DNA of 64,000 bases, taken from NCBI RefSeq assembly GCF_029625315.1, contig NZ_CP121110.1, positions 1-64,000 of the forward strand. The letters are read 5' to 3'. The DNA comes from Flavobacterium ginsengisoli (GTDB taxonomy: Bacteria > Bacteroidota > Bacteroidia > Flavobacteriales > Flavobacteriaceae). Both the position numbers and the translations under genes were made by a program. The notes under the pieces were generated by a model. It did not search any database, was not told where the DNA came from, and saw nothing but the letters and a program-made list of their open reading frames with translations. Of the stretch, positions 2,136 through 60,894 are shown in pieces; the first letter of the stretch is position 1; the number at the start of each line of letters is the position of its first letter.

Positions 2136-5100
2136 ATGATTAAAAATTTACTCATATTCAGCCTTCGTAACCGCTGGGTTATAATTGCAATTAGTGTTGT
2201 TTTAATGGCAATAGGTTTTTGGTGTTTTACCAAATTAAAAATAGAAGCATATCCAGATATTGCAGATACGAATGTAATTATAGTAGCACAATATGACGGA
2301 AGAGCAACTGAAGAAGTAGAACAGCAAGTTACTATTCCGATTGAAAGAGCTTTGCAGAATACACCAAATGTTTTAGATCGAAGAAGCAGAACTATTTTTG
2401 GTTTGTCGGTAGTGCAACTTACTTTTAAAGATGGAACTGATGATTATTTTGCACGACAACAGGTAACAGAACGACTTGCAGAAGCTGAATTGCCAGATGG
2501 TGTTGCGCCTTCATTAGCGCCGCTTTCTACTGCTGTTGGGGAGATTTTTAGATACGTTGTAGAAGCACCGTCAAATTATAGCCAAGCAGAGCTTAGAGAT
2601 CTTCAGGATTGGGTTATAAAACCTGCTTTGCTCGCAAGTTCCTGGAATTGCCGATGTAACTACTTTTGGTGGTCCATTAAAGCAGTTTCATATTATTACT
2701 TCGCCAGAAAAACTGAGAAAATACAATCTTACGCTTAAAAACGTAATGGACGCAGTAGATGCAAACAATTTAAACACCGGTGGAAATATTATTGAAAGAG
2801 GCGGACAAGGTTTTGCAGTGCGTGGTTTGGGAGCAATTAAAACGGAAAGAGATATTCAAAATATTGTTCTTAAATCTGAAAACGGAGTTCCTGTTTTTGT
2901 TCGTGATGTAGCAACTGTAGAAATTACGCCACCACCGCCAAGTGGTGTAATGGGATATACCGTTACCCAAGACAAAAAAGATGTAAGCAGCGGCGTTGAA
3001 GGTATTATTCTTTTAAGACGATATGAAAACCCAAGTGAGGTTTTAATATTGCTAAAAGAAAGAATGGCTGAATTACAGGAAAATGATTTGCCTCAAGGTG
3101 TAAAATTGCGCCCTATGTATGACAGAACATTCTTGATCGATCATTCGCTAGAAACTGTTGCGCATACCTTGTTTGAAGGAATTTCTATTGTAATTATTCT
3201 ATTGATTCTGTTTCTTGGAAGTGTTAGAAGTGCATTAGTTGTAGCTTTAACCATTCCGTTTTCATTATTGTTTGCTTTTATTTTAATGAGGCTTACGGGT
3301 ATTCCTGCCAATTTACTTTCGCTAGGAGCAATAGATTTTGGAATTATTGTAGATGGAGCCTGTTTAATGGCTGAACATCTTATAAGGAAATACAGAACAG
3401 CCACACCAGAAGAAAAACAAGATGGGATTGTGCAAATCACATTACAAGCGACTCAAGAAGTGGGAAGAGAAATTTTCTTTTCAGTAACCATTATCATATT
3501 GGCTTATATGCCTATACTTTTAATGACTAGAGTAGAGGGTAAATTGTTTTCTCCAATGGCTTTAACTTTGGCTTTTGCTGTTATTGGTTCGATGTTGGGA
3601 GCGCTTACCTTTATTCCAGTTCTAATTTCTTTTGTTTATAGAAAAGCAATGCTTGATGTTGATAAACCTATAAAAGAACATAAAAATGTGGTGTTAGATT
3701 ATTTGACTAGATCATACGAAAAAGCATTATCTGGTTTTTTAAATAATTATAAAAAAACTACAGTAATTGGTTTTTCGATTGTAGCAATATTTATTTTATG
3801 CGGCTTAAAACTAGGAACCGAATTTTTACCCACATTAGATGAAGGATCGATCTTTTTAAGAGGAAATTTTCCTGCTGGAATTTCTATACAGGAAAATGCC
3901 AAATACGCTCCTAAAATCAGAAAAATAATAGCGAAGTATCCTCAAATATCTTACGTGATAACGCAAACAGGGCGTAATGATGATGGTACCGATCCGTTTC
4001 CTGCCAATAGGAATGAGATTTTAGTAGGATTAAAAGATTACAAACTCTGGAGCGATACCATTGCTAAGAAAGATTTGGTCGAAATAATTAAAAAAGATTT
4101 GCAACAGCAAATTCCATCAGTGCAATTTTCTTCAGGACAGCCAATTATCGATCAGGTTATGGAAATTGTAAACGGAAGTGCGGCAGATCTTGCAGTTTCT
4201 GTTGTGGGCGATGATTTGGAAATGATGAGAAAAAAGGCAGAAACAATTGCGCAAATTGCTAAAAATACGCAAGGTGCTGAGAATGTCAATATTGAACAAG
4301 AAGGAGAACAAGAGCAATTGGCAATTGATATTAATAGGGAACAAGTCGCGAGATTTGGAATTAATGTAGCAGATATTCAAAATATGATCGAGGTGGCAAT
4401 TGGCGGAAAAACAGTTTCAACTTTATACGATGGAGCAAAGCGTTATGACATTGTAGTTCGTTTTTTACCACAATACAGAAGTTCTATTGATGCGATAAAA
4501 GATATTTTAGTGCCATCTTCAAATGGCGCTTTAATTCCAATGAATCAATTGGCAAACATACATTTTGTTGAAGGACAAACTAATATTTATCGTTACGGAA
4601 GCAAACGAATGATTACCGTTAGAACCAATATTAGAGGAAGAGATCAGGGAAGTTTTGTAAAAGAACTGCAAAGTAAAGTAGGTAAAAATGTAACCGTGCC
4701 AAAAGGATATAGTATCATTTATGGAGGACAATATGAAAATCTCGAAAGAGCAGGAAAACAACTAGCATTTACCATTCCGCTTACTATTATTATGGTTTTC
4801 TTGTTTTTATTCATGCTATACAAAAACTTCCAGCATACTATGATTACCATGAGTTGTATTTTGTTTGCCTTAGGAGGCGGAATTGTAGCTTTACTTCTTA
4901 GAGGTTATTACTTTAATGTTTCTGCAGGTGTTGGTTTTGTGAGCATTTTTGGAATTTCGGTAATGTCGGGCGTACTTCTTGTATCGGCTCTTAATAGAAA
5001 AACAATGTTTAAGAATGATAATCTGCAAGAAAATGTATTGACAGCTTCAAAAGAACAATTAAGAGCTTTATTATCAATTTTGGTTGTGGCTATTGTGGGG

Positions 5101-5253
5101 CTAATTCCAGCGACTACATCTTCTGGTATTGGTTCAGATGTTCAGCGACCGCTTGCAACGGTAATTATAGGCGGTTTGAGTAGTACATTAATTTTTGCTC
5201 CAATATTAATTCCTCCTTTATATTTTTGGTTAAATGAGAGAAAAACGAAATAA
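2136..5253 (+). CDS. CusA/CzcA-family heavy-metal efflux RND pump (one-base frameshift near 2630)
   Basis: This is the inner-membrane proton-driven pump of the tripartite efflux system, about 1038 residues once one extra base is removed. The N-terminus (residues 1-165) reads in one frame and the rest in the next. At 2630-2635 the sequence GCTCGC interrupts the expected KPALLQVPGIADV; reading GCTGC restores it. Twelve membrane segments flank two large periplasmic loops. The fourth-helix motif DFGIIVDGA followed by a Glu is the heavy-metal (HME) RND signature, which separates it from drug RND pumps. The exact metal (Cu, Ag, Zn, Co or Ni) cannot be read from sequence. The rest of the frame is clean and without decay, so an assembly error is more likely than a pseudogene. 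A terminator follows at 5267. Confidence 0.9.
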
Positions 5254-5266
5254 AATCTAACATAAA

Positions 5267-5299
5267 AAAAAAGTCCCAATCAAATATTGGGACTTTTTT
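5267..5299. terminator. Bidirectional intrinsic terminator
   Basis: A perfect 14-bp stem (AAAAAAGTCCCAAT at 5267-5280) with a 5-base loop pairs with its complement ending in a T run at 5299. A-runs and T-runs on both sides let it serve both the RND pump gene from the left and the convergent lipoprotein gene from the right. Confidence 0.9.
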
Positions 5300-5305
5300 A
5301 TGCAT

Positions 5306-5770
5306 CTAATTTTTTTTATTTTCCAATTGCACCTCGAATTTTCCCCAATAAGGATTTTCCGCCATTTGAGAATGTCCAATAATTAGGATATAATCACCAG
5401 TTTGTTTGGCCTCTATTTTGAGTTCTGTACCAAAAGGCCCGTCTGCTGTTTTGTCTGGATAGATAATCTGGTTAAAACGAATATTGGCATTAGTTTTCTC
5501 CTGTATAATTCTTCCGTTTAATTCACTCGAAAATTCATTTTTAAATTTGACATATATTCTAGAATGTATAGAATCTACGTTGCCATTTGCAATAAATACA
5601 TTTTTTTCATTTTTATAATTCATAAAAATAGTATCGCCAATCTGTTTATTTTCTTGTTTTTGTGGCTCTTCAGTTGCTGTTTGTACTGTTTGAGGAGTAT
5701 TTTCGTTTCCTTTTTGCTTCTGGCAAGAATATGCCATAATGCATATCATAATTATTAAAAGACTTTTCAT
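5306..5770 (-). CDS. Hypothetical lipoprotein
   Basis: A 154-residue protein with a lipoprotein signal peptide (MAYSC, Cys16), then a low-complexity Q/N/E/T linker to about residue 45 and a beta-strand-rich C-terminal domain. That domain ends with a segment (TGDYILIIGHSQMAENPYWGKFEVQLE) resembling the compact beta-sandwich ends of pre-peptidase-like or inhibitor-like domains, but I do not recognise a named family. It is likely tethered to the outer membrane on the periplasmic side. It is a single-gene unit convergent with the metal efflux operon and shares its terminator. A TAAATTTG match (minus strand, 5794-5801) about 25 bases upstream could be its promoter -7 box. No function is proposed. 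Confidence 0.75.
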   Translation of the reverse strand: MKSLLIIMICIMAYSCQKQKGNENTPQTVQTATEEPQKQENKQIGDTIFMNYKNEKNVFIANGNVDSIHSRIYVKFKNEFSSELNGRIIQEKTNANIRFNQIIYPDKTADGPFGTELKIEAKQTGDYILIIGHSQMAENPYWGKFEVQLENKKN

Positions 5771-9400: not shown

Positions 9401-9493
9401 GCCTATTCAGGAAACTTAAGTCGTTTATTAACTGTAGGATATAATACGCCACAGTCGCGCAATCTGATTTTAGGACTTAATATAATTTTTTAA
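6408..9493 (+). CDS. SusC/RagA-family TonB-linked outer membrane receptor (frameshift near 6871)
   Basis: TonB-dependent importer of about 1028 residues after correction. The order is: signal peptide (to about residue 32, ending SNAQ), a CarboxypepD_reg-like domain (TTVTGTVSDANGPIPGANV, to about residue 110), the TonB box-like EVVVIGYG, the plug (SVDILKDASATAIYGSRGANGV), and a 22-strand barrel ending in a hydrophobic strand with terminal Phe. The frame breaks at a G run near 6871, where one missing G (GGGG for GGGGG) turns LPGVQITQ into an early stop; adding it restores the plug. Both halves are otherwise clean. It is transcribed with the SusD gene 10 bases downstream. No glycoside hydrolase accompanies the pair, so the substrate is unknown. 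Confidence 0.93.
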
Positions 9494-9503
9494 AAAGACA
9501 GTA

Positions 9504-11483
9504 ATGAGACATATTAAAGTAAAAAAATATATTGTAACGGCACTTGCTTCAGTTTTTCTAGTAGGGTGTTCAGATAATATTTTGGACGAGAAGCCTAGAG
9601 CTATTTTTACTCCAGACTATTTTTCTACTCCAGAAGGGGTAATGGGAGGAATAACATCAATGTACGGCCATTTGAGATATATGTATGGAAGTGGTTATTT
9701 TTTAAATACTGGACAAATTGCAACTGATGAGTCAACTTGGGGGCAAAACTCAGATGGAAATGTTAAGAATTTAGACTTCTCAGGAGTTGGTGTAATTAAT
9801 GCTCAAACTAGTAATACAGGTATTGTGTGGGGAGCTACTTTTCCAAATATTAATACAGCTAGTGGTGTAATTGAGAATGCATCTAAAATTGGAACGATTT
9901 CTCCAGCGCTAATCGCAGAAGCAAGATTTTTTAGAGCTTTTGATTATTTTTTGTTGGTACAGACTTTTGGCGGTGTGCCATTGGATTTAGGAGCTGGAGA
10001 ATTAAAATTTAACTCTTCAACTGTAAGAACTTCTGTGCGTAATACAGTTCCTGAAGTTTACAGTAAAGCAATATTCCCAGATTTAAAACAAGCAGTTGAA
10101 GATTTGCCAGTTGCAGGACGTGTAACGGGAGGACTTACTAAAACTGCAAGACGTTTTTATCTTGCTAAAGCGTATTTGACCTTTGCATGGTGGCTTGAAA
10201 ATCCTAATAATATTCCAACTTATCCCGCAAGCGATCGTAAAGATTTGGACGGACATGATGCGGCTTGGTATTATCAGCAGGCTTACGATGTTGCGGTAGA
10301 AGCAATTAATAACCCAGGTCCTTTTGCATTGCTTCCTTCTTTTTATGAAGTTAGCGTAGGTAAAAACGATCGAAATAAAGAGATGCTTTTGTATGCTGAT
10401 CACACAGAAACTAGCTCTCTTTATAATGGTGGCGATATAGGTTATAGCGGAGGTGGTTTTAGTACTGATTATTTTGCTGGATGGTTTGGGCAATTTAATT
10501 ATACTGGAGTTAGAAGTTCTTCAAGCAACACTGGTTGGGCCGCGGTAAGTTCTGTGCAGCGTGAAGCAGAGCAACATTTAGGAAGACCTTGGACTATGTT
10601 GGCACCTCCTATTGAAGTGTTTAAAAAGACATTTGCCGATAAAACTAATGATTCTCGTTACGATGGTACTTTTACCACAGTTTACCGCGGAAACTGGGCA
10701 AAGGCAGGAATTACTGCTCCAGTATTATATAATGCAAATTATCTTCCTATAGCAAACGGTGATCCAGTTCTGACTTTCTTAAATGAGGATACATCAGGAA
10801 TTGATTATTCTAACTCAGTATTTAACAGTTCAATTGGAGCGGGAGTATTGCCAGGAAGAGCCGATTTTGTAATTGAACCAAGTGTAATCTCTAGGATATG
10901 TTATCCAGGAAACTGGAAATTAGGACCTTATCGTACAGATAATGGAGCAGGTTTAGGATCTCCTAATGGAAGTAGTACGCGTCCGTTTCCAATAGCTAAA
11001 TTCTCAGAACTGTATTTTGTTGCTGCCGAAGCCGCGGTTAAAGGCGCTTCTGTACAAGGAGGAAAAACAGCAAGAGATTTAATTAATGTTATTCGTGCTC
11101 GTGCCGGAAAATGGACTTTTGACAACAACGGAAACAAAGTAAAAACGCAAGATAATAGTGCGGCAATGACTGCAGCAACTCCAATGGTTATTGATATTGA
11201 TTATATTTTGGCAGAACGTTCAAGAGAATATTTTGGAGAAGGCTACAGATGGTATGATTTAGTGCGTACTCAAAAATGGACAGAATACGGAAATTCATTT
11301 TCAATCGCAGGAGCTACTAATCCAAACGATTGGAAAGATCACACTGTTAAGGTGTTTACAAGAACAATTTCTCCACAAAATTACCTTCGTCCAATACCAA
11401 CAAGCCAACTTGATGGTATGCAAATGTCAGCCGAAGAAAAAGCAGACTTATCAAAATCCTGGCTATTAGCCATTTCACAATAA
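9504..11483 (+). CDS. RagB/SusD-family surface glycan-binding lipoprotein
   Basis: A 659-residue lipoprotein (signal ending LVGCSDN) with the SusD organisation: TPR-like helices in the N-terminal half (IAEARFFRAFDYFLLVQTFGGVPL is the family's hallmark helix) and the C-terminal SusD signature ILAERSREYFGEGYRWYDLVR. It caps the SusC barrel encoded immediately upstream and delivers the ligand. It is longer than typical SusD proteins (about 500-550 residues), the extra length lying in the middle (about residues 270-480), where the ligand-binding loops are. A strong terminator follows at 11505, so SusC-SusD form a two-gene operon convergent with the beta-glucan locus. Confidence 0.93.
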   Translation: MRHIKVKKYIVTALASVFLVGCSDNILDEKPRAIFTPDYFSTPEGVMGGITSMYGHLRYMYGSGYFLNTGQIATDESTWGQNSDGNVKNLDFSGVGVINAQTSNTGIVWGATFPNINTASGVIENASKIGTISPALIAEARFFRAFDYFLLVQTFGGVPLDLGAGELKFNSSTVRTSVRNTVPEVYSKAIFPDLKQAVEDLPVAGRVTGGLTKTARRFYLAKAYLTFAWWLENPNNIPTYPASDRKDLDGHDAAWYYQQAYDVAVEAINNPGPFALLPSFYEVSVGKNDRNKEMLLYADHTETSSLYNGGDIGYSGGGFSTDYFAGWFGQFNYTGVRSSSSNTGWAAVSSVQREAEQHLGRPWTMLAPPIEVFKKTFADKTNDSRYDGTFTTVYRGNWAKAGITAPVLYNANYLPIANGDPVLTFLNEDTSGIDYSNSVFNSSIGAGVLPGRADFVIEPSVISRICYPGNWKLGPYRTDNGAGLGSPNGSSTRPFPIAKFSELYFVAAEAAVKGASVQGGKTARDLINVIRARAGKWTFDNNGNKVKTQDNSAAMTAATPMVIDIDYILAERSREYFGEGYRWYDLVRTQKWTEYGNSFSIAGATNPNDWKDHTVKVFTRTISPQNYLRPIPTSQLDGMQMSAEEKADLSKSWLLAISQ

Positions 11484-11504
11484 GGTTAGTTTAAGTTAGT
11501 TGAA

Positions 11505-11539
11505 AAATAGGAGCAAAAGATAAACTTTTGCTCCTATTT
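11505..11539. terminator. Intrinsic terminator between convergent operons
   Basis: A 15-bp stem whose left arm is AAATAGGAGCAAAAG (11505-11519), a 5-base loop, and the perfect complement to 11539. It sits just after the SusD stop and before the convergent GH16 gene. Confidence 0.85.
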
Positions 11540-11659
11540 AGTTTTTAGAGAACTCTAAGATAGAATTAAACTAATTTCCGATCTCAGCAAAACAGCTATG
11601 AATGCCGTTGAGGTAAAATTGTTTTGAAAAAAACGCTTGAAAATCAGCTAAAATTTAAA

Positions 11660-12598: not shown

Positions 12599-12653
12599 AA
12601 TTTAATTTTTTGGTTTATTAATAGTTGAAGTAAATTATTATAGCTTAAAAAAA

Positions 12654-15289: not shown

Positions 15290-16815
15290 TTAGTTAAAGT
15301 TAAAAGGAACAGGAGGCTCTAATAACGATGGATTAGTATCAATAGCAGTTTGCGGTAAAGGCAATTCAAAGTAGTTGCTTCCAGGAGTTATTTTTCTTGA
15401 AATCAATACTGTTCTGTCATCATCAGAATAAAATCCAACTTCTTGTTGTGAAATAATAGCTGTTGCTTCCGCTAGACCACGGCGTTTTAAATCAAAGAAA
15501 TATTGTCCTTCAAGTGCAAATTCAATTCTTCTTTCGTTAAATAAATCATCTCTTGTAAGAACTGTTTTAGCTGGTAATCCCGCTCTGGCTCTCACTTCAT
15601 TAAAAGAGTCTAAAGCAGCTGCAGAAGTAGTTGAACTGGCTCCTGCCAAAATAGCCTCAGAATTCATTAGTAAAACGTCAGAATACCTTAGTATGATTGT
15701 GTTTTGCGAAGTTCTCATAAAAAACACATCGTTTCTTTCGGCAGCAGATCCTACAATATACTTTCTGAAATTAGTCGCAGTCGATGAGTATATTTTTTTA
15801 TATCTGAAACCGCCTTGATTTTTTAACAATTCAGGATAAAAGTCACCATCTGTCATGATTGTGCTCTTTTTTCTAGTGTCATTTGGCTCAAAACCGCTTT
15901 GCAATGAAATAGAAGGCAGATAAACTCCCCAACCGTCACCACCGCCAGTTATTCCAGTACCACCAGGAACTATATACGCTTGATTTGTATTTTGCGTTCC
16001 CCATTCTGTAGCAACTGCCTTCCATTGCAGCCGCAAACATACTTTCGGCGCTATTATTATTTTCGGGACTGCTAAATAAGTTTCCGTACTCTTGAATTAA
16101 AGTGTATTGATTTCCGATAATTTTCTGAGTTAGAGTTGCACATTCTGCATATTCATTTAATGTCAAATGCACTTTTGCAAGAATTCCCATAGCAGACAAA
16201 TTTGGTAACATATCCTTTTTTTACCGAAGTTGCTGGTAAATTTTCGATCGCATATTCTAAATCTTGTTTTATGAATTTGTAAACATCTGTAACAAGATTT
16301 CTTTTTGGTTGCGCAGCCGATCCTGCTTTGTTGATAATAGGCACAGCTCCAAAGCTTCTTACCAGATAGAAATAAGCATTGGCTCTCATAAACCTTGATA
16401 TTGCTATGGCATTTTTATAAGATGCTTCTGGGAGCTCGCTTTTTCTGTCTTCAACCAAACTCATTAAATTATTAGATTGATCAATAACAGAAAACAAAGA
16501 AGTATATCCTTCTGTCAGGATTGGATTCTGCGAAGTTACCTGAGCGTCTTTAAATTGTGCATATGCACCATCAAATGTAAATGCGTTGCCAGCGTACATA
16601 TCGCCAACTGCAATTAAGAATTTATCATTAAAAGTAAACCAAGGTTTAAAATACAAACTCTCGGCAATTCCATCAAAAGCGGTAATTCCTTCGGGTAAAT
16701 CGCCAGGTGTCAATTGATTTTCAGATGGAGCATCCAAAAAATCATCAGAACAGGAAAATAAAGACAGCAATGGTATTACCATTCCGATCATAAAAAGTTT
16801 AAAAAGTTTTTTCAT
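15290..16815 (-). CDS. RagB/SusD-family lipoprotein (two frameshifts)
   Basis: About 507 residues after removing two extra bases. The start gives a lipoprotein signal ending LFSCSDD. The N-terminal helical domain (RFMRANAYFYLVRSFGAVPI) reads in one frame to about 16195, where GCAGAC stands for a likely GCAGC (KFAAMGILAKVHL expected). A short middle frame runs to about 16030, where a further inserted base lies in a GCAGCC context (QWKAVATEWG follows). The C-terminal SusD signature (FNERRIEFALEGQYFFDLKRRG) is intact. It is the SusC partner for beta-glucan or xylan oligosaccharides. It starts 59 bases after the SusC stop and is followed within 8 bases by the glycan-binding lipoprotein gene. Confidence 0.9.
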
Positions 16816-16874: not shown

Positions 16875-19800
16875 TTAAAACTCTAGATTTAGACCCATAG
16901 AAGTTATTCTCGGTACTGGGTATCTTCCTAGATCAATACCGCTAAGGGTTATATTTTGATCTAAATTTCCTAAAGCAGGATCAAAACCAGAGTATTTTGT
17001 CCATGTGTATAAGTTTTGGACATTGACATACAATCTAACTTTAGATATAATAGACTTTTCGAAGATTTTGCTTGGTAAATCGTAGCTCAAAGAAACATTC
17101 TGAATTCTTAAATAAGAACCATCTTCAACAAATCTATTTGAGATTCTTCCATTCCCATTTGGATCATTAAGCGTAATTCTAGGTTCATTCGTATTTTCAT
17201 TAACTCCTGGTTCAAAAGCATTTAAAGCTCTTGTGCTCACATTTGCAAATCGATCTCCAAATCCAGGATAGATACCATCTGTATAGTGACGAGTAAAGTT
17301 GTAGATTTCATTGCCTTGGCTTCCCGTTAAAGCAATTGATAAACTGATGTTTTTGTATTTAAAGTTATTGGTAAATGAATAAGTGAAATCAGGTATTGCG
17401 CTTCCTATAGAAGTCTGATCTTTAGCATCAATTTTCCCATCATTATTAAGATCTTTAAAACGAATATCACCAATTCCTGTTCCTGTTTCCTGAATTGGAC
17501 CTGCTGCTAATTCTGCTCGCATTTTTAAATATTCCATCTGTAACATATCCATAGAATTGTCCAACTGGCTGGCCTTCTGTAGTTCTAGTTACAGTATACA
17601 AGTCGAATTGAACTTTACCCAATAAAGATTTACCTGCCCCTTGAAAACTGGTAAGTTCATTATTGTATTTTGAGAAAATAATAGTACTATCCCAAGTAAA
17701 ATTATCTGTAACAATGTTTCTTGTGTTTAAGGTAAGTTCGACCCCTTTAGTTTGAATTTCACCCGTATTCAAATAATAATTTAACGCACTTTGATTTGAC
17801 TCATCATTGATTTGCTTAGTAAGGAAATTTGAAGAATGTTTTACATAATAATCAAAGTCTAATTTTACTCTATTGCTAAGCATTCCTAGTTCAAAACCAA
17901 TGTTAAAAGACTTAAGAGATTCCCATTTAATATCAGGATTTCCTAAATTATCAATTGTTGGAGACACGCCTCCAAAAGGAGATGCAGTCAATGAAAGAAT
18001 GGTTTGATATCTGTTAGCAGGAATGTTTTGATTTCCTACCGAACCATAACCACCTCTAAATTTCAGATAATTGACTGTATTAGATAAAGGTTCAAAAAAG
18101 CTTTCGTTACTAACAGTCCAACCTGCAGCAAATGATGGAAAATATCCCCATTTATTATTAGGTCCAAAGTTAGAAGAAGCATCAGCTCTTAAAGAAGCCG
18201 AAAAAGAATAGCGATTAGAAAAACTATAATTTAATCTCGAGATGTATGAGGTCATCGACCATCTTCCAGAACCATTTCCATTAACGGCGGTATCTATATC
18301 GCCTATGTTTAAGTTGGTAAAATCTTTGCTAAGGAAATCGCCCGATCTGTAACCGCTTAAATATTCGTATTGGCTTTCTTGTGCTTCCTGACCTAGTAAG
18401 AAAGTGAAATTATGTTTTTCACTAAATGTTTTATTATATGTCAAATAATTTTTTAAACTCCAGTAGAAACTTTGATCCTGCTGTTTAAAAGATTTATTTA
18501 ATAGCTCAGATACATTTCCTAAAGTGTAGGCAGGGGCAAAAGAGCCGCTCTTTTGCAAAATTTAAATCATATCCCAATTCTGTTCTAAAAACCAATCCTT
18601 TCGTAAGAGTGAAATCGGCAAAGACATTTCCATTAATTTTGTATCGGTCTGCTTTTGCGTTATTGTATTCTGATAATGCAATTGGGTTGGTTGCCTCATT
18701 TGCAGAAGAACCTAAACCGCTTGTTGGGCCGGCATAAGAACCATCGGCATATCTAACAGGTAATTCTGGAGACTGCCTTAATGTATTCATTACTAAACCA
18801 CCTCTGTCATCGTTTCGAACTACTTGTTGAGATGATCTGCTTATTGACATATTGTTGCCAATTTTAAGCCATGATTTTACATTTGAATCCACATTTAATC
18901 TCATAGACATTCTATTGAAATCTGAATTCATCACAATTCCTTCCTGATCAAAATAATTCAAAGAAGTATAATATCTTGTTCCGTCTTTTTCGCCTGAAAA
19001 TGATATTTGATGATTATACATAGTGGCAGTTCTAAAAAGTTCGTCCTGCCAGTTTGTTCCATTGCCTAATAAATTTGGTTTTTGATATTGATAAGGAACT
19101 GGTTCTCCATTTAGTTTGAAGATTTTAGTCTGATAAGCGGCATATTGAGGCAAGTTTAAAACATCAACTGAATTTGCCACTTGCTGAGTACCTAAATAGG
19201 TTTCATAGGTAAAAGCCGACTTTCCTTTTTTTCCTTTTTTAGTTGTAATCAAAACGACACCATTCGCACCATTTGCACCATATATTGCCGTTGATGAAGC
19301 ATCTTTTAGGATATCAATAGTTTCGATATCCGAAATATTTAATCCAGATAAAGCCGAGTTTTTAGTCTGCCCATTTCCTCCGCCTAATGCACTAAATGCA
19401 AATGAGTCGTTGTTTTTGTCTGCAAAAACAGGTGTTCCGTCAATTACATATAAAGGTTCATTTCCATTAATAGAGGTAATTCCCCTAATTTGCACCGAAA
19501 TTCCTCCTCCTGGAGTTCCAGAATTTTGAGTAACATTTACACCTGCCGCTTTACCTACAAGAGCTTGATCGATGGAAATAAAAGGTTTGTCTTGAATTTC
19601 AGATGCTTTGATGGAAGAAATAGCACCATTTACATCTTTTTCTTTTTGAAGTTCCGTAGCCAATAACCACGACTTCATTTAATTTCTCAAGGTCATTAAC
19701 CATGTTGACTACCATCACTGATTTTGTATCTGCTTGAAGGGATACAGTTTTGTAACCTATGTAGCTAAAAATCAATGTGCTTTTCGGATCTACATTGTTT

Positions 19801-19981
19801 AAAATAAATCCTCCGTCAAAATCAGTGGTTGTAGCATTTTTTGTTCCTTGTACTGCTACACCAACACCGGTAGGCCAAGACCTCCTGATGTTACTTTTCC
19901 TTTAACAGTTTGCGCAAAGAAAAAGTTTCCCCACATACATACTATTAAACATAATAGTTTTTTTAATGTTTTTTTCTGCAT
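16875..19981 (-). CDS. SusC/RagA-family TonB-linked receptor (four frameshifts)
   Basis: About 1034 residues when four single-base errors are corrected. The true start is the ATG at 19981 (MQKKTLKKLLCLIVC, signal to FFFAQ). Breaks: a missing G in CCGGTG near 19873, which cuts the CarboxypepD_reg-like domain after a few dozen residues; an A-run near 19650 just after EVVVIGYGTS; an extra A or G near 18553; and GCTCGC at 17515-17520 (GCTGC expected). All pieces line up to one SusC, with the plug motif ETIDILKDASSTAIYGANGANGV and a barrel ending LGLNLEF. The corrected length is an exact multiple of three. It heads the minus-strand operon SusC-SusD-SGBP-GH10-GH16. Confidence 0.9.
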
Positions 19982-20351
19982 AAAAATTGGTCGATTAAGT
20001 TAGTTTGTTTTTACTTGTAAAATATTTAATAGAAGAGACTTTTACATGTTCAAAAGTGGAGCTATAAGAAGATTCTCTTTTTCTTAAAAATTTCTTAACG
20101 AAAGTAAAATGTAGTGTGCTCGCTATTGTAGAACGCATGAAGCATATTGTGCAACAAATGATGCAAAAAATGGGGATTAAGGGCTGTTATTGCTGAAAAG
20201 AAACAATTATGATATAAAACAGGCGATAAAGTATTGCTGAAAAAACTGCTAAAAAAATACCTTTTGTATAAAAAAGAAGCAGTAATATTTTAGATATATT
20301 AGATTTTGCTCTCAAATAACAGAAAAGATTTTTGAGGAAATTGACTTACAA
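19982..20351. other. Intergenic region upstream of the SusC operon
   Basis: About 370 bases that must hold the promoter of the SusC operon and probably the binding site of the hybrid sensor's AraC domain. I see no clean TAnnTTTG box; the nearest is TACTTTCG (minus strand, 20098-20105). No ORF or RNA gene is visible. Confidence 0.4.
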
Positions 20352-27681: not shown

Positions 27682-28345
27682 CTAAATTGTTTTTGTATAG
27701 CAAATTAAAGTAATAACGTTTACTTGTCTGGTGTTTTTTAATTTGTTGCGAGCAAGTCCGTAGCATTTCATAGATTTTAGACTTTCAATAAGAGCGTCTT
27801 TTGCAGAGAGGTAATCACTTAATTCTTGCTTAGTTTCTGGACATCTTGTATCACCCCATCTGCCAGCAAAATCTAACATAATACCATCTAAAAAATCACT
27901 ACATGTATTGGCTCGTTCTGCTTTCTTTTCTAGATTTAAGCTTCCGACTAATCCAGTTAATGACCCTGCAATTAAACTAGTTAATGCTTGCTCCTTTTGT
28001 GTCTCCATCAGAAAAAAGACCATATATACCGCCTCCAACACCTACTACTGTACCAGTAATTACAAAAGCAGTTCCAGCTTTATTTGATTTTTTTCGTACA
28101 ATTTCGTTTTTGTCTTTATATTCCTTGACCATTAATATAAAATCATTTCTGTCTTTCTCCCAAATTTTGCAATCACGTGTAGAAACTAGATTATTATTTG
28201 TTAAATTAGTGATTTCTGTTTTCAATGATTTTTGATAATCTAATAAAATACTATTTTGATTATTTGTAAAAGATTTTGTAGGACTGCAACTTGAAAATGT
28301 AGAAATAGCAACAAATAATACTGTAATCCATTTGAAAATTTTCAT
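27682..28345 (-). CDS. Hypothetical lipoprotein (one frameshift)
   Basis: About 220 residues after correction. The N-terminus is a lipoprotein signal (FSSCSPTKS, Cys20), followed by a helical segment rich in K, E and N, a glycine-rich membrane-like stretch (FVITGTVVGVGGGIYGLF, about residues 94-111) and a C-terminal helical part with TCSDFLDGIMLDF. The two halves are in different frames; at 27986-27991 the plus strand reads GCTTGC where GCTGC would give KGAALTSLIAG and one continuous protein. No named family is recognised. The glycine-zipper-like stretch suggests membrane insertion or oligomerisation. It is a single-gene unit between the GH3 locus and tRNA-Tyr. Confidence 0.7.
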
Positions 28346-32820: not shown

Positions 32821-33055
32821 ATGAATAGTAAATTCGAAACACTAAAAGCAAACGTACAGGAAATCATTGATTTGATTGCTCGCGAAAAACGATAGAGAAG
32901 CAAACAATAAATTATTGGAAGTAAGCGAAACACTTGACGAAATGATTGATTTTGCTGAAGAAGATGAAGAGGTGAGAGAAATCACTCGTTATCAGGTTTT
33001 GTTGAATCAGCTTCATGTAAAAATTAATGGAGAAGAACCAGTTGATGGAGAATAA
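32821..33055 (+). CDS. Hypothetical small acidic helical protein (one frameshift)
   Basis: About 77 residues after correction. The frame starting MNSKFETLKANVQEIIDLIA breaks at GCTCGC (32878-32883); reading GCTGC continues it as AKNDREANNKLLEVSETL and onward to the stop at 33055. Without correction the ORF is only about 24 codons, which is why it is easily missed. The product is acidic and all-helical, possibly a small adaptor. It overlaps the start of the YchJ-like gene by 11 bases, indicating an operon. Confidence 0.65.
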
Positions 33056-33425: not shown

Positions 33426-33532
33426 TTATTATATCTAACACTGTTAGTCTGCGGATTTTGGTTAAATATTTTAACTAAAAATTAATAAACGATTCGTTTT
33501 TCATAATTCTAAAAAGATGTAATTTTAGATTT

Positions 33533-37349: not shown

Positions 37350-37505
37350 ATGAAAAACTATAGTCAAAATATAAGAACGTCTTTTCCATGTCTGCTTTGC
37401 GATGTGCTGCATGATGAATCACGTTTTGAAATGGCGTTAATAGAGAAAGTACTTGTTAGTTATTTTTTTTTAGCCTTTCATTGCACCATGAAAGGCTTTT
37501 TTTGA
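37350..37505 (+). CDS. Candidate 51-residue leader peptide ending in a terminator
   Basis: ATG at 37350 gives a 51-residue frame (MKNYSQNIRTSFPCLLCDVLHDE...) with a CLLC pair and its last dozen codons, including the FF-TGA end, inside the stem-loop at 37472-37503. Ribosome progress would therefore decide whether that hairpin forms, the logic of an attenuator. It could equally be the mRNA start of a small regulatory RNA of about 160 bases. No family is recognised. Confidence 0.4.
   Translation: MKNYSQNIRTSFPCLLCDVLHDESRFEMALIEKVLVSYFFLAFHCTMKGFF
37472..37503 (+). terminator. Intrinsic terminator/attenuator upstream of glutamate dehydrogenase
   Basis: A 10-bp perfect stem AGCCTTTCAT / ATGAAAGGCT with a 6-base loop and a T-run. 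It lies about 175 bases upstream of the dehydrogenase ATG and follows a promoter box, so it would end a short transcript. Confidence 0.8.
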
Positions 37506-37678: not shown

Positions 37679-38964
37679 ATGAGTTCAGAAATTATAAAAC
37701 ACAATCCGTTTCAATCGATGATTGATCGCTTTAATATCGCCGCAGATATTTTGAATTTAGATGATTCTATCAGACAAAAATTGCAACGCCCAGAAAAACA
37801 AATCACAGTAAATTTTTCTATTACATTAGATAATGGAAATGTTCAGAACTTCGAAGGATACCGCGTAATTCACAATACAGCTTTAGGTCCTTCAAAAGGT
37901 GGAATTCGTTACGATACTGCTGTAAACTTGGACGAAGTAAAGGCACTTGCCGCCTGGATGACCTGGAAATCTGCTGTAACTGGAATTCCCTTTGGTGGTG
38001 CTAAAGGCGGCATTATTTGCGATCCGAGAAATCATTCTAAAACAGAATTAGAAAAAATCACAAGAGCTTATACCAAAGCTTTATCCGATATTTTCGGACC
38101 AGAAAAGGATGTTCCTGCTCCAGATATGGGAACTGGCCCAGACGAAATGGGTTGGTTAATGGATGAATTTTCGTTATTGCACGGAAGACCAATTCATGCT
38201 GTAGTTACAGGAAAGCATCTTCATTCTGGCGGATCTTTAGGCAGAGTAGAAGCTACTGGAAGGGGATTAAGCATTATTACGCTTTTGGCGCTTCAAAAAC
38301 TAAAAATCAGACCAGCAAGAGCTACGGCAGCAATTCAAGGTTTTGGAAATGTTGGATTGCATTCTGCTTTGTTTCTTCATGAAAAAGGAGTGAAGATTGT
38401 AGCTGTAAGTGATGTTTCAGAAGCATTTTATAATCCGAACGGAATTAATATTCCAGAATTGATCTTGTATTATAATCTGAATAACAAAACCATAAAAGGA
38501 TATCCTAATTCGGTAGCGATTAAACATGAAGATTTATTGCTTTTAGATGTTGATGTTTTAATTCGGCCGCAAAAGAAGATGTTATTACGCAGAAGAATGC
38601 TGGAGATATTCAAGCGAGAATTATCGTTGAAGGCGCAAATGGTCCAGTTGCTTCAGATGCAGATCAAATTTTACATGATAAAAATATATTAGTTGTTCCT
38701 GATATTTTAGCCAATGCTGGTGGTGTTACCGTTTCTTATTTCGAATGGCTTCAGAATTCGCTTTTGGAGTCTTGGAGAATTCACCAGATTAACAAACGTC
38801 TGGAAGATATTTTAGAGAAAGGTTTTGAAACTGTTTTTAGAGTTGCAGTAAAACACAATGTAACGCCTCGTATTGTCGCTTATATTATTGCTTTGAAAAA
38901 AGTGGCCGAAACACAGTCGGTTAAAGAAGTGGCATTGGAAGCTCCTTTATTTAAGCAGAATTAA
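37679..38964 (+). CDS. Glutamate dehydrogenase (Glu/Leu/Phe/Val family), one frameshift
   Basis: About 428 residues after correction. It interconverts glutamate and 2-oxoglutarate plus ammonia with NAD(P). The N-terminal domain carries the substrate region with [18 protein letters not shown] and the catalytic Lys in PFGGAKGGI, followed by [14 protein letters not shown]. The Rossmann domain has [10 protein letters not shown]. The frame breaks near 38556, where ATTCGGCC lacks one base ([17 protein letters not shown] is expected); downstream, VEGANGP and the C-terminal helix are in the next frame. The length and the intact motifs favour GDH over leucine dehydrogenase. The upstream leader peptides and terminator suggest attenuation control. 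Confidence 0.9.
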
Positions 38965-40480: not shown

Positions 40481-40507
40481 TAGTTATCGTTTGCACGCAG
40501 ACGAAAA

Positions 40508-43157: not shown

Positions 43158-44242
43158 ATGAAAAAGTTTATATATACAATTTTACTTGCCTTGTTGATGG
43201 CTCCTAATTTTATTCAGGCACAAGAAGCTGCTGGAGCTGTTGGGGCAATGTCATCGTATCCTGCTGTTTACAAATATGATGAACAAGTTACTTGGTATTT
43301 TGATATGTCGGCATCGACATTTGCTGAAACAGAAGATTTATATATCTGGATTTGGTCTCCATCTGAACCAGATGCTGGACACTGGGAAAACTCGTCTGAT
43401 TTTGCAAAACTGAAATACGAGGGAAATAAAATCTGGAGTTTTACGCTAACTCCAACTCTTTATTTTTCTAAAACTCCAGAACAAATTGCTCGCGAGTGAT
43501 GGATTTTGGTTCCGTTTAAAAAACAAAAACGGATCTAAGCAAAGTGATGTTGCAAATATGGCGTATGTTGATTTTTCTTCTTTTTACACTTCAGGTGAAT
43601 TATTTAGATCATATCCAACAAAACCATTAATCGATAAACCGGTAAGTATTTTGTTTAATGCAAATCTTAATCCAGCATTTGCGGGCACTCCAAGTGTACA
43701 TATGCATGGAGGTTTAAATGACTGGGCTATTCAGCAAATGTATGAAGCCGCAAAACCAGATGTTGCTTGCAAAAACAAAATTAAAAGACTTAGGGAATGG
43801 TTTTTATAAAATGGATTTTATTCCTAAGCAGTACTTTAATGCTCCGGATGATTTTGTAATGGAAAAGATAAACTTTCTGATGGTAGCAGAGAATTGGACA
43901 GCAAATTCTGGCGATCAGGTTATTTACGCAGGAGAATTTGTTCCGCCACCGCCACCAAGTTTCGCTTTCTTTCCATCACAAATCAGTCAAAAAGATTTTC
44001 TTGGAATGTCAAGAAAAAACAATGAGGTAGGTGTAAACAAATTGATCTACACGATTACAGCTGGACCAAAAACAATTTCTGGTGAGTTTACTGGAGGAAC
44101 TGCAGAAATTAAAGGTTTTGTCAATTTAGTATCAGAATTAAATGGAGTTCCAAGTTTAAGCGAAATCCATGTTTTGGTAAAAGACAACAAAGACAAAACG
44201 ATTTCGGATACGACGATTCCGCTAAAAACTTTAGATAAATAA
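43158..44242 (+). CDS. SusE/SusF-like glycan-binding protein (two frameshifts)
   Basis: About 360 residues after removing two inserted bases. It has a signal peptide (IQAQEAAG) but no lipobox cysteine, which is unusual for SusE/F. It has two beta-sandwich modules with carbohydrate-contact-like aromatics (YIWIWSPSEPDAGHWEN; MHGGLNDWAIQQMY) and a C-terminal domain after a proline-rich linker (PPPPPSFAFFPSQISQ). Breaks at GCTCGC (43488-43493) and GCTTGC (43765-43770); reading GCTGC gives EQIAASDGFWFRL and KPDVAAKTKLKDLG. It probably holds polysaccharide near the SusCD complex. Cotranscribed with SusC. Confidence 0.75.
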
Positions 44243-48828: not shown

Positions 48829-48837
48829 GTTACTAGA

Positions 48838-48945: not shown

Positions 48946-49041
48946 TTTCACGCAGATTCTGCAGATTAAAGCAGATTTTATTTTAAATGTTAAAAAATAA
49001 TCTGCGCATATCTGCTTAAATCTTTTTAAATCTGCGTGAAA
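48946..49041. repeat. CACGCAGATT-family inverted repeat
   Basis: Left arm TTTCACGCAGATTCTGCAG with AAAGCAGATTT; right arm AATCTGCGCATATCTGCTT with AAATCTGCGTGAAA. The outer arms pair over about 14 bases. It lies between the SusD terminator and the GH99-like gene. Confidence 0.7.
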
Positions 49042-49117
49042 TAAATTAATCACAATAAAATCCTTTTTAATCTTTTAATCTGTGGCAAAATATAAAAATA
49101 ACAAACAGTACATCAAT

Positions 49118-50361
49118 ATGAAAAGATATATCACATCGTTGGCTTTTGTTTTGATGAGTATTGTGATGGTTGCGGTTGCAGCAGCGATGACAAAGGCTCA
49201 GACAAACCAGTAGAACCAGAAAAAACAAACCCTGTTGCGATTGAGAAAACCAACAGCACCAAAATTTATATGCACTACATGCCGTGGTTTGAAACCAACG
49301 AAAGCAGTGCCGATAAAAAATGGGGATATCATTGGACAATGGCAAACAAAAATCCGAACAACGTAGGGGCAAACGGCCGAAGAGAAATTGCATCGTACTA
49401 TTATCCGCTGATTGGGCCTTATCACTCAGGCGATAAAAATGTGATTGAAAATCATTTATTGATGATGAAATATTCAGGAATTGACGGAATTCTCATTGAT
49501 TGGTACGGTACTTACGATGTAAACGATTACGGAATGATTAAAGAAAACACAGATCAGTTAATTGAAATGCTCGACAAAGTTGGTTTAGAATATGCCATTG
49601 TATACGAAGATCGATTCTTGACAAATGTTGTAAATGCAGGAAAAGCAATTTCCGTAACCAGTGCGACAAAAACAGATTTGGCATATGTAGAAAAGAATTA
49701 TTTTTCTGATGCTAATTATATTAAGATTAATGGTAAACCGCTGTTAATGAATTTTGGACCAATTGTTTTGAAGACCCCAGCTGAATGGACAAATGTCTTT
49801 AATACTTTAACAGCAAAACCAACTTTCTTGACACTTTGGGATCACTCTTCATTGGCAGGAGAAAATGCTTCTGGAGAATATGCTTGGGTATACAAAGACA
49901 ACAGTTATTTGACAAACTTTTATACCAATACAAAACCAAAATTGGGTGTAGCAATGGGAAGCGCTTATCCAGGTTTTAAAGATTTTTATGCCGCAGGCGG
50001 AGGCGGCGCTGCTATTGGATGGACTATAGAACATAACAACGGAGCGACACTTGATGAAACTTTGACTTTGGCAAAAAACGCCAATGTAAATTACCTGCAG
50101 CTGATTACGTGGAATGATTTCGGTGAAGGAACCATGATTGAACCAACGGTTGAGTTTGGTTATTCTTTTGTTGAAAAAATAAAAACTTTCGCTGGAGTAA
50201 AAAACACAGAAAGTACATTTCCAGATATCAGCAAATTGTATGATTTACGCGTACAGAAAAAAGGAAATGTCGAGGCCCAGAAAAAACTCGATCAAGCTTT
50301 TAATTATTTTGTTTCTATGCAACCTGCTAAAGCAAAACAAGTAATGAGCGAAATTAAATAG
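49118..50361 (+). CDS. GH99/GH71-like glycoside hydrolase, lipoprotein (one frameshift)
   Basis: About 414 residues after correction. The start at 49118 (MKRYITSLAFVLMSIV) joins the main frame if one G is added in GCGGTTGC near 49174, giving the lipobox VAGC; without it the ORF appears to start at 49270 without any signal. The catalytic barrel has KIYMHYMPWFETNES, GIDGILIDWYGTYD, VGLEYAIVYEDRF and LQLITWNDFGEGTMIEP, typical of GH99/GH71-like proteins that act on alpha-linked glycans. The exact activity is unknown. It is followed 25 bases later by GH97, fitting an alpha-glycan target. Confidence 0.78.
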
Positions 50362-50386
50362 AGCTGTAATTAATACAATTTAAATA

Positions 50387-52407
50387 ATGAAAAACAGAAA
50401 ATATAGATACTGTCTTGTGGCTTTAGCATCAATGCTGGTTATGGCCTGCAGTACTAAAAAAACGTATAAAATCAGTTCTCCTGAAAAGATCTCTGAATTA
50501 ACTTTTGAATTAACGCCTACTGGACAGCCTCAATATAGTTTTTCTTCTAACGGAAAATCGGTTATTGAGCCTTCTCTTATGGGATTTGAGTTTCAAGGCT
50601 TGGCCAAAATGACTGATGGTTTTGAAGTCGTTTCTACAGAAGAAAAAGCGGCAGATGAAACTTGGGAACAACCTTGGGGAGAATTCAAAAAGGTAAGAGA
50701 TCATCATAACGAACTGATTGTTCATTTAAAAGAAGCAAAAGGCGAGGAGCGTTTAGTTGATATTATATTCAGAGTTTTTGATGATGGAGTTGGATTTCGT
50801 TATGAATTTCCAAAACAGCCTCATTTAGGAAAAGTTAAAATCTCTAATGAAGTAACGCAATTTACTTTTAAAGACAATAACGAAGTTTGGTGGATTCCAG
50901 TTCACCGCGAAAATAGTTATTACGAAAGTGAATATCGTAAAACATTAATGAGTAAAACAGATACGATTAATACGCCTGCAACTTTTGAAACTAAAGACAA
51001 ATCGTATGTAGCCATTCACGAAGCTAACTTGACAGATTTTGCTTCAATGACGCTTTTAAAAACTACAGACAAACAGTATAAAAGTGATTTAGTGCCGTGG
51101 GCAGATGGTGTAAAAGTATATGCAGAAACACCATTTAAAACACCGTGGAGAACTATTGTTGTGGGTAAAACTCCTGGAGATGTAGCAACTTCGACTATTA
51201 TGCTGAATTTAAATGAGCCTTCAAAAATTGAAGATTTATCTTGGATCACTCCTTCAAAATATATTGGAATCTGGTGGGGAATGCATTTAGAAAAATATAC
51301 TTGGGGACAAGGGCCAAAACATGGTGCGACAACAAAAAACACAAAAGAATATATTGATTTTGTCGCGAAAAATGGTTTTGACGGAGTTTTAGTTGAAGGA
51401 TGGAATGAAGGCTGGGACGGAGACTGGACTGCAGATGGTTCTGCATTTAGTTTTGTAAAAGCATATCCAGATTTTAATTTGGAAGAAATCACAAAATATG
51501 CTTGCGATGAAAAATGTTCGTTTAATAGGACATCATGAAACAGCTGGAGCAACCAAAAACTACGAGAACCAACTGGATGATGCATTTAAATTGTATCAGA
51601 AAATGGGAGTAAACTCAGTAAAAACAGGTTATGTAAACAAATATTTGGATAAAAAAGAATGGCATGATAGCCAATACGGAGCACGTCATTACAGAAAAGT
51701 GATCGAAACTGCTTGCTAAATATCATATCATGATTGACAACCATGAACCAATGAAAGGAACGGGTTTACAGCGTACATATCCAAACTTTATGTCTCAAGA
51801 AGGCGGACGTGGACAAGAATATAATGCATGGTCGGTAGACGGAGGAAATACACCAGAGCATTTAACAACTTTGCCATTTACAAGAATGCTTTCTGGACCA
51901 TTTGATTACACGCCTGGGAACTTCAATTTTGATTACAAAACTCCATCTGGAGCAAAAGTGCAGACTACTTTGGCAAATCAATTGGCATTGTACGTGATTA
52001 TTTTCAGTCCGTTGCAAATGGCTTCAGATTTACCTGAAAATTACGAAGGCAAACCAGAATTTCAATTCGTAAAAGATGTGCCATGTACTTGGTCTGATAC
52101 TAAAGTATTAGATTCTAAAATTGGAGAATACACTACAATTGCTCGTAAAGATTGGGATGAGAAGAATTGGTATTTAGGTTCAATCACAAATAGAAATGCA
52201 AGAGACTTAAAAGTAGCTTTGTCATTTTTAGATAAAGACAAAGAATACGAAGCAGAAATCTATGCAGACGGACCTGGAGCAAATTATAAAACCAATCCGT
52301 ATCCAGTTACAATCTCTAAACAAAAAGTAAACAGTAAAACTGTTTTAAATATCAAATTGGCAGCTGGCGGAGGAACAGCAGTAAAATTCTCTCCAATCGA
52401 AAAATAG
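50387..52407 (+). CDS. GH97 alpha-glucosidase-like lipoprotein (two frameshifts)
   Basis: About 672 residues after removing two inserted bases. Signal peptide with lipobox MACS. The N-terminal beta-sandwich (residues 25-270) is followed by the barrel with IGIWWGMHLEKYTWGQGP, EGWNEGWDGDW (about residue 342) and DNHEPMKGTGLQRTYPN then SQEGGRGQEYN (about 451 and 470). The Glu residues in NHEP and SQEG match the inverting, SusB-like branch rather than the retaining alpha-galactosidase branch. Breaks lie at GCTTGC (51500-51505) and GCTTGC (51711-51716); reading GCTGC restores KYAAMKNVRLIGHHETAG and IETAAKYHIMIDNHE. It would release glucose from alpha-oligosaccharides. Confidence 0.9.
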
Positions 52408-59900: not shown

Positions 59901-59901
59901 A

Positions 59902-59909
59902 TACATTTG
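59902..59909 (+). promoter_or_regulatory. Promoter -7 box of the MarR-GNAT gene
   Basis: TACATTTG matches TAnnTTTG. No TTG is visible at the expected distance, as the repeat block ends there. Confidence 0.55.
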
Positions 59910-59923
59910 TATAACTAGTTATA
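59910..59923. promoter_or_regulatory. Candidate autoregulatory operator of MarR-GNAT
   Basis: TATAACTAGTTATA, a perfect 14-bp palindrome directly after the -7 box, at the predicted transcription start. This is where a MarR dimer would block its own promoter. Confidence 0.55.
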
Positions 59924-59940
59924 TAATTAATTATTTGTTT

Positions 59941-60894
59941 ATGGAATTTTTTGATAAAGTTGGAAAAGCGGCGTTAGGAAGCCGTTTACGTTTAATGACT
60001 GCTATTGTTACCGATGATGTTGCCAAAATATATGAATTGTATGGAGTTGATTTTGTGCCGAAGTGGTTTCCTGTATTTTATACATTGGCAGAAGAACGTG
60101 AAATAACCATTACTGAAATTGCCAATGAAATTGGTCATTCTCAGCCTTCTGTCAGCAAAATCATTCAGGAAATGATTGGTGCAGGATTAATTCAAGAAAG
60201 CGCAAAAACAGATGATAAACGTAAGAATAATGTAGCACTTACTGAAAAAGGAATTTTAATTTCGAAGAAAATCAAGCAAGCAGCTAGAAGATATTGATGT
60301 TGCAATTGAAGGGATAATTACTGAAAGCAAGCATAATTTGTGGGCAGCATTGGAAGAATGGGAGTTTTTACTAGAGCAAAAATCTTTAATAAAAAGAGTT
60401 AGCGAACAAAAGAAAAAAGAGAAAGCAAAGATGTAAAAATTGTAGAATATAAACCAGAATATCAGCAAGCTTTTAGAGAATTGAATGTAGAGTGGATCTC
60501 GAAATATTTTGAAATGGAAGAAGCCGATTATAAAGCGTTGGATAATCCTGAAGATTATATCTTGAAAAAAGGAGGAAAAATTCTTGTGGCTTTATATGAA
60601 AATGAACCTGTAGGAGTTTGTGCTTTGATTAAAATGAACAATTCCGAATATGATTTTGAAATGGCAAAAATGGCCGTTTCTCCAAAAGCACAAGGAAAAA
60701 GTATTGGTTGGCTTTTAGGAAAAGCAATTGCCGAAAAAGCAAAAGAACTAGGAGCAAAAAAAATATATTTAGAGAGTAATACAATCTTAAAACCTGCAAT
60801 AAACCTATATTATAAATTAGGCTTCGAAAAAGTTTTCGGTCTTGAAACTCCGTACAAAAGATGTAATATTCAGATGGAATTAATAATTAAATAA
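59941..60894 (+). CDS. MarR-GNAT fusion: transcription regulator plus acetyltransferase (two compensating frameshifts)
   Basis: About 317 residues read from the ATG at 59941. Residues 1-150 are a MarR winged-helix domain (ITITEIANEIGHSQPSVSKIIQEM and wing DDKRKNNVALTEKG). The C-terminal 150 residues are a GNAT acetyltransferase with the acetyl-CoA motif SPKAQGKSIGWLLGKAIAEK. The frame shifts +1 at GCAAGC (60276-60281, GCAGC expected, giving KQQLEDIDVAIEG) and returns near 60430 in an A-run before DVKIVEYKPEYQQAF. Fused MarR-GNAT proteins are a known family. The acetyl acceptor is unknown. A cupin gene follows after 6 bases. Confidence 0.87.

What the first reader, a model, noticed from the sequence alone, without database searches (positions are those of the whole stretch)
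2630..60281. Nine frameshifts share one signature: GCTGC read as GCTCGC or GCTTGC
Reading frames break exactly at GCTCGC (2630, 17515, 32878, 43488) or GCTTGC/GCAAGC (27986, 43765, 51500, 51711, 60276). In each, deleting one base to give GCTGC (or GCAGC) restores a family-consistent protein. Two further breaks (16192 GCAGAC, 16027 GCAGCC) fit less exactly. The hexamer lies in both orientations relative to the coding strand, so an mRNA-level recoding signal is excluded. The pattern suggests a systematic base-calling error at GCTGC, as known for nanopore reads over modified cytosines. If so, the genome may carry a GCWGC-type methyltransferase. Many GCTGC sites are intact, so it is a bias, not a rule.
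Basis: partly seen in the sequence, partly recalled or inferred. Interest (0 to 1): 0.75.

Follow-up and report, generated by a model that had tools for sequence, protein, structure and literature searches.

The report
Methylation-linked sequencing errors in Flavobacterium
Many genes in this Flavobacterium genome look broken only because the sequencing misread about half of the GCAGC/GCTGC sites, which one of the bacterium's own DNA-methylating enzymes probably marks; it is a sequencing artefact of a known kind.

Summary
Confirmed, and larger than reported. The window lies in a 5.41-Mb one-contig Flavobacterium genome. The ~99% identical strain IB48 covers 10 of the 11 listed breaks: in all 10 the window carries one extra base; nine are GCWGC in IB48, one is GCCGC. 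Over 344 kb, 60 of 477 GCWGC sites hold an inserted base (0.49 expected) and 243 of 477 are altered, mostly by substitutions that keep the frame, e.g. GCAGC to GCGAC. The change is one-way (243 lost, 19 gained), orientation-neutral and blind to coding (58 of 67 in ORFs, against 35 of 130 other frame-changing indels), and splits the only glycyl-tRNA synthetase found and DnaE: not real mutation. A second signature is deletion in CCGG (12 of 179 sites). The genome has two C5-methyltransferases: one beside an HpaII-family (CCGG) endonuclease, one resembling methyltransferases beside Bsp6I-family (GCNGC) endonucleases. Best reading: miscalls of native, probably nanopore, reads at methylated sites. 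The same kind of error at this motif is in print for Listeria (PMC10687267, passages).

The parts
2630..2635 (+). Six-base word in place of a GCWGC of IB48; breaks a gene of the RND efflux-pump type (2136-5253; name by eye)
11442..11447 (+).
16027..16032 (+). Extra base at a GCWGC of IB48; breaks a SusD-like gene on the minus strand
16192..16197 (+). Six-base word in place of a GCWGC of IB48; breaks the same SusD-like gene
17515..17520 (+). Six-base word in place of a GCWGC of IB48; breaks a SusC-like gene on the minus strand
20118..20123 (+).
27986..27991 (+). Listed GCTTGC; no counterpart in the IB48 contigs fetched, untested
32878..32883 (+). Six-base word in place of a GCWGC of IB48
33446..33452 (+).
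37389..37395 (+).
40497..40502 (+).
43488..43493 (+). Six-base word in place of a GCWGC of IB48; one of two breaks in a gene that is a single 360-aa ORF in IB48
43765..43770 (+). Second break in the same gene, at a GCWGC of IB48
51500..51505 (+). Six-base word in place of a GCWGC of IB48; breaks a gene that is a single 672-aa ORF in IB48
51711..51716 (+). Six-base word where IB48 reads GCCGC; second break in the same gene
60276..60281 (+). Six-base word in place of a GCWGC of IB48; breaks a gene that is a single 316-aa ORF in IB48
19865..19870 (+). One base fewer than IB48 in a CCGG context (second signature)
38562..38567 (+). One base fewer than IB48 in a CCGG (second signature)
49170..49176 (+). 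One base fewer than IB48 in a CCGG (second signature)

Best explanation
The frame breaks are errors of the assembly, not of the genome. The bacterium's own C5-cytosine methyltransferases modify GCNGC (at least GCWGC) and CCGG sites. Reads taken from native DNA, most probably nanopore reads without short-read polishing, give a shifted signal at these sites. The base caller then writes GCWGC as another five-base word (mostly GCGAC on the GCAGC strand) or as a six-base word, and drops a base in CCGG. The length changes break reading frames. Shown: the changes, their motifs, their one-way direction, orientation-neutrality and blindness to coding, and the presence of two matching methyltransferase genes. 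Inferred: the platform, the modification itself, and which enzyme makes it.
For: GCWGC: 60 of 477 sites with an inserted base, 0.49 expected; 243 of 477 altered, 243 lost against 19 gained; an extra base in IB48 inside a GCWGC of this genome in 1 of 253. Nine other pentamers are kept at 76-97%, the two lowest being able to overlap GCWGC. GCWGC length changes are in ORFs in 58 of 67 cases like the sites themselves (431 of 477), other frame-changing indels in 35 of 130 (p 3.6e-16). The only glycine-tRNA ligase found and DnaE are split. Related species read as IB48 90 times and as this genome once at 16 altered sites, and as neither 138 times. CCGG deletions: 12 of 179 sites, 0.06 expected, 0 of 175 in reverse. 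Homopolymers of six or more shortened 41 times, lengthened 8 times. Genes: PF00145 methyltransferase plus RE_HpaII endonuclease; a second PF00145 gene sharing the recognition block of methyltransferases next to Bsp6I-family endonucleases. Precedents: PMC10687267 (passages), PMC6591954 (passages).
Against: No raw reads, and the platform is unknown. IB48 is a sister strain, not the same DNA. GCSGC, which a GCNGC enzyme should also mark, is hardly affected (117 of 137 kept; insertions in 6 of 137). The recognition block is also found in a relative next to an NgoFVII-family endonuclease and in one next to a PLD-domain endonuclease, so it does not fix the exact specificity. About half of the GCWGC sites are read correctly. 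Weak matches to N6-type methyltransferase families exist, and families other than five were not searched.
Confidence: 0.95

Rival explanations
1. A base-calling or polishing bias at GCWGC and CCGG words that has nothing to do with methylation (a plain sequence-context error).
For: Which sites fail depends on the flanks (A 61% against G 36% on the 3' side of the GCAGC strand; the GCAAGC form is followed by A in 23 of 24 cases), and the modification was not measured.
Against: The two affected words are those expected of the two C5-methyltransferases found; other pentamers are not affected to a like degree; GCWGC errors were tied to modification in Listeria and vanished after whole-genome amplification (PMC10687267, passages).
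Confidence: 0.04
2. Real mutations: gene decay, phase variation or methylation-driven mutation at GCWGC sites in this strain.
For: Methylated cytosine is mutable, and a Vsr gene stands beside the methyltransferase; some altered forms (GCAAC 21, GCAGT 4) are what deamination would give.
Against: The main forms (GCGAC 89, insertions) are not deamination products; length changes ignore coding; the only glycine-tRNA ligase found and DnaE would be broken; half of the sites would have changed while control words stay at 76-97%.
Confidence: 0.007
3. Programmed frameshifting or another RNA-level recoding signal at the six-base words.
For: Only the shared hexamers.
Against: They lie in both orientations to genes and also between genes; IB48 has single open frames there; most altered sites are substitutions without a frame change.
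Confidence: 0.003

Closest known systems
Modification-mediated nanopore errors at GCAGC/GCTGC in Listeria ST87 (PMC10687267; passages seen)
   Same: Same pentamer, native-DNA reads, a lineage with a methyltransferase; the passages also report errors at GCSGC.
   Different: Another phylum; there errors are described as mismatches and tied to the mza system; here insertions as well, a Vsr-linked methyltransferase, and a second motif (CCGG).
Dcm-motif consensus errors of nanopore base callers (PMC6591954; passages seen)
   Same: m5C motif missing from the training set gives consensus errors; homopolymer errors come next.
   Different: Motif CCWGG in Enterobacteriaceae.
Methyltransferases next to Bsp6I-family endonucleases (GCNGC in passages of PMC9465063 and PMC9799307)
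   Same: 51-54% identity in the alignment and a shared recognition block.
   Different: No endonuclease gene beside it here; Vsr instead.
M.BatI, GCDGC-specific m5C methyltransferase (PMC8936443; abstract and passages seen)
   Same: Full methylation of GCWGC and one-strand methylation of GCSGC would fit the strong GCWGC and weak GCSGC footprint.
   Different: Prophage orphan of another phylum; its sequence was not compared here.
HpaII restriction-modification system
   Same: RE_HpaII endonuclease next to a C5-methyltransferase and a CCGG footprint.
   Different: The IB48 endonuclease at that place is only 31% identical to this one.

Membership tests
Modification-mediated nanopore base-calling errors | Errors concentrate at one short motif, in both orientations | tested here: met
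Modification-mediated nanopore base-calling errors | Changes confined to one assembly and blind to selection | tested here: met
Modification-mediated nanopore base-calling errors | A methyltransferase gene fitting the motif is in the genome | tested here: met
   (by family and recognition block; specificity itself not measured)
Modification-mediated nanopore base-calling errors | Reads are nanopore reads of native DNA; errors vanish in amplified DNA or short reads of the same isolate | not testable with these tools
   No reads or platform record; homopolymer shortening 41 to 8 is only indirect
GCNGC (Bsp6I-type) m5C methyltransferase | C5-methyltransferase domain (PF00145) with intact frame | tested here: met
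GCNGC (Bsp6I-type) m5C methyltransferase | Recognition block shared with methyltransferases beside Bsp6I-family endonucleases | tested here: met
   but also shared with relatives beside NgoFVII-family and PLD-domain endonucleases, so not decisive for the exact motif
GCNGC (Bsp6I-type) m5C methyltransferase | GCSGC affected as GCWGC is | tested here: not met
   117 of 137 GCSGC kept against 234 of 477 GCWGC; points to GCWGC or GCDGC preference, or to better base calling of GCSGC
Bsp6I restriction-modification system | Bsp6I-family endonuclease beside the methyltransferase | tested here: not met
   Neighbours are Vsr and riboflavin synthase (riboflavin synthase by eye); so not filed as that system
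HpaII restriction-modification system (CCGG) | RE_HpaII endonuclease next to a C5-methyltransferase | tested here: met
mza defence system (Listeria precedent) | mza gene cluster around the methyltransferase | not tested
   ORFs around the Bsp6I-like gene were listed but no mza model was run

The most novel reading that the evidence does not exclude
Finished assemblies made from native-DNA reads keep a readable imprint of the methylome: comparing one such assembly with a short-read sister strain gives the motif of each m5C enzyme without raw data. Here that imprint would assign a GCWGC-preferring (GCNGC or GCDGC) specificity to a solitary methyltransferase-Vsr pair kept beside riboflavin synthase in 4 of 4 Flavobacterium genomes examined (this one and three), which would make it a conserved housekeeping-type methylation of this clade.
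Probability: 0.5. Interest if true: 0.45.

Novelty: new member of a known kind. Interest (0 to 1): 0.3.

Why it matters
Scaled up from the 344 kb compared (inference), this assembly would hold about 3,800 altered GCWGC sites and about 1,050 false length changes at them, so its pseudogene calls, completeness estimate (95.5%) and strain distances are unreliable. It is the genome held for its species in the search collection, so false frameshifts can spread into databases. It also suggests a cheap way to read methyltransferase specificity from deposited assemblies.

Tried and rejected
Strand asymmetry: in the window the breaks lie mostly in GCTGC orientation, which looked replication-linked; over 344 kb the orientations are equal, so it was dropped.

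Other methyltransferases: PF01555 none, PF02086 none, PF02384 two weak hits of 27.8 and 22.1 bits, PF07669 two weak hits of 24.2 and 22.7 bits. The weak hits were not pursued. Families beyond these and PF00145 were not searched.

The solved-structure search put HhaI methyltransferase first for both enzymes, which says nothing on specificity here. The homologue search listed 120 relatives with generic names or none. The phage search listed 40 of 1,707 records; one was named orphan methyltransferase M.SPRI, at 39% identity; none was pursued.

CCGG substitutions (CTGG 13, CCAG 9 of 179) are matched in the reverse direction (12, 10 of 175) and are taken as true variation; only the deletions are taken as errors.

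Literature searches: GCWGC with methyl; nanopore, methylation, GCTGC, errors; GCNGC with target recognition domain; Flavobacterium with GCNGC; nanopore with methylation motif and assembly errors; Bsp6I with GCNGC. One search found one paper, not about GCNGC methylation of Flavobacterium by its title and abstract. Passages of PMC6329791 show m4C at GCWGC in Chloroflexi; this genome has no PF01555 match, so m4C is thought less likely, but it is not excluded. Passages of PMC10305163 and PMC12392509 were seen and add only background.

In this version I corrected the layout, added the NgoFVII and PLD-domain neighbours as evidence against an exact motif, and recounted the totals; the odds for the best explanation were set at 0.95.
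Full report
What was claimed. Nine (plus two looser) reading-frame breaks in the window share a GCTGC or GCAGC that has become a six-base word, suggesting a methylation-linked base-calling error.

Where the window lies. It is bases 1-64,000 of a single 5,414,540-base contig, completeness 95.52%. An AAA-type ATPase of the window (34809-36272; name by eye) has its best match, 100% over 487 residues, in Flavobacterium sp. IB48, whose contig title is of the SPAdes style, that is, short-read (the reading of the title is mine). In the first alignment the two agree at 99.03% over 17.7 kb.

The listed breaks. 59,569 of 64,000 window bases align with IB48. Ten of the eleven breaks are covered, and at each the window has exactly one extra base. 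Nine of the ten read GCTGC or GCAGC in IB48, including both looser ones; at 51711 IB48 reads GCCGC. 27986 lies in a stretch not covered by the IB48 contigs fetched, and 20 other genomes gave only short matches or none.

Scale. 344,105 bases of IB48 were compared with this genome, in blocks of at least 95% identity and 1,000 bases from 8 regions (shorter or less similar blocks were dropped). This set does not include window bases 1-28,611, whose IB48 counterpart was found later. Of 106 one-base insertions, 69 touch a GCNGC. Counting only insertions strictly inside the motif and leaving out runs of three or more, 60 of 477 GCWGC sites are hit against 0.49 expected, and 6 of 137 GCSGC sites against 0.14. 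Substitutions are commoner than insertions: 243 of 477 GCWGC sites are altered, read on the GCAGC strand as GCGAC 89, GCGGC 28, GCAAGC 24, GCAAC 21, GCAGAC 18, GCGAGC 13 and rarer forms. Nine control pentamers are kept at 76-97%; the two lowest, CAGCA and CTGCA, can overlap GCWGC. With GCWGC contexts masked, the strongest remaining 5-mer is CGATC, 45 lost and 18 gained, p 4.5e-4 before correction for hundreds of words.

Not real mutation. Losses outnumber gains 243 to 19. At 16 altered sites in one stretch, 15 related loci agree with IB48 90 times, with this genome once, and with neither 138 times; at 12 kept sites the figures are 75, 0 and 105. So these relatives vary, but hardly ever show the altered form. 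GCWGC length changes lie in ORFs in 58 of 67 cases, like the sites themselves (431 of 477), whereas other frame-changing indels avoid ORFs (35 of 130; Fisher p 3.6e-16). 48 IB48 ORFs are hit; ten of the 48 were scanned and include glycine-tRNA ligase, DNA polymerase III alpha and aspartate-semialdehyde dehydrogenase. The glycine-tRNA ligase query matches only its two pieces in this genome. DnaE matches three pieces, and the only other match is a 33-39% identical relative. A cell is not expected to live with these breaks (established knowledge of these enzymes).

Genome-wide. GCWGC density is 0.65 per kb in 744,033 counted positions of this genome and 1.45 in 480,023 of IB48; in all 20 spaced 20-kb stretches it is at most 0.9. 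GCGAC is 0.66 per kb here and 0.44 in IB48. Scaling 243 and 67 events per 344 kb to 5.41 Mb gives about 3,800 altered sites and 1,050 length changes (inference).

A second signature. Of 31 one-base deletions outside runs of four or more, 12 fall in CCGG (12 of 179 sites, 0.06 expected), none in the reverse direction (0 of 175). Homopolymers of six or more are shortened 41 times and lengthened 8 times; homopolymer length errors are a usual nanopore fault (PMC6591954, passages).

The enzymes. The genome has two PF00145 genes. The first, at 3,188,603, is followed by an HpaII-family endonuclease (PF09561, 314.5 bits); HpaII cuts CCGG (recalled). The ORF was in view before the deletions were listed. 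The second, at 4,007,513, lies beside Vsr. Seven of the 30 plasmid records listed were opened: six are 50-54% identical, one is a 39% identical outgroup. Three have an annotated Bsp6I-family endonuclease next to the methyltransferase, one an NgoFVII-family endonuclease and a Vsr (NgoFVII recognises GCSGC, recalled), one a hypothetical protein, one a PLD-domain endonuclease, and the outgroup another type II endonuclease. Bsp6I recognises GCNGC (PMC9799307 and PMC9465063, passages). The block YVRENK..VCPTLTANMGTGGHNVP is shared, with small changes, by the second enzyme and the five of these relatives that were aligned (three Bsp6I, one NgoFVII, one PLD neighbour), and is absent from the HpaII-type enzyme and the outgroup. 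So the GCNGC class is supported but not the exact middle base. Passages of PMC9465063 report GCNGC modification only in the strain with the Bsp6I-type gene; there it is called m4C although predicted m5C. IB48 carries both methyltransferases at 97% and 99% protein identity, yet has an extra base in only 1 of 253 GCWGC sites of this genome, as expected of short reads.

Open points. GCSGC is much less affected (117 of 137 kept). Either the enzyme favours GCWGC, like M.BatI, which methylates GCWGC on both strands and GCSGC on one (PMC8936443, abstract and passages), or GCSGC is better learned by base callers (inference). Which sites fail depends on the flanks: the rate is 61% with A and 36% with G on the 3' side of the GCAGC strand, 53% with A and 58% with T against 37% with G on the 5' side, and the GCAAGC form is followed by A in 23 of 24 cases.

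Precedent and novelty. The same motif and mechanism are in print for Listeria ST87 (PMC10687267, passages), and the general effect for Dcm sites (PMC6591954, passages). This is therefore a new instance of a known artefact, with two methyltransferases and two footprints in one assembly.

Noticed in passing
window 6408-24567 and 44271-52407: Polysaccharide-utilisation clusters with SusC/SusD-like genes, a hybrid two-component regulator and glycosidase-like genes (names by eye from the translations).
   Followed up: no
window 24865-28611, tRNA-Tyr at 28922-29003: The IB48 counterpart of window 1-24864 is on one contig end and that of 28612 onward inside another contig, whose sequence before that point does not match the window: a rearrangement or island next to tRNA-Tyr, or a contig break.
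   Followed up: partly
L001 (G000:C1:3188603) and L103 (IB48): The CCGG-type methyltransferases are 97% identical but the endonucleases beside them only 31%: the endonuclease gene seems to have been swapped.
   Followed up: no
L002, L105, L106, L107: The GCNGC-class methyltransferase and Vsr stand beside riboflavin synthase in 4 of 4 Flavobacterium genomes examined, at 94.5-99.4% methyltransferase identity, without a recognised endonuclease beside them in this genome.
   Followed up: partly
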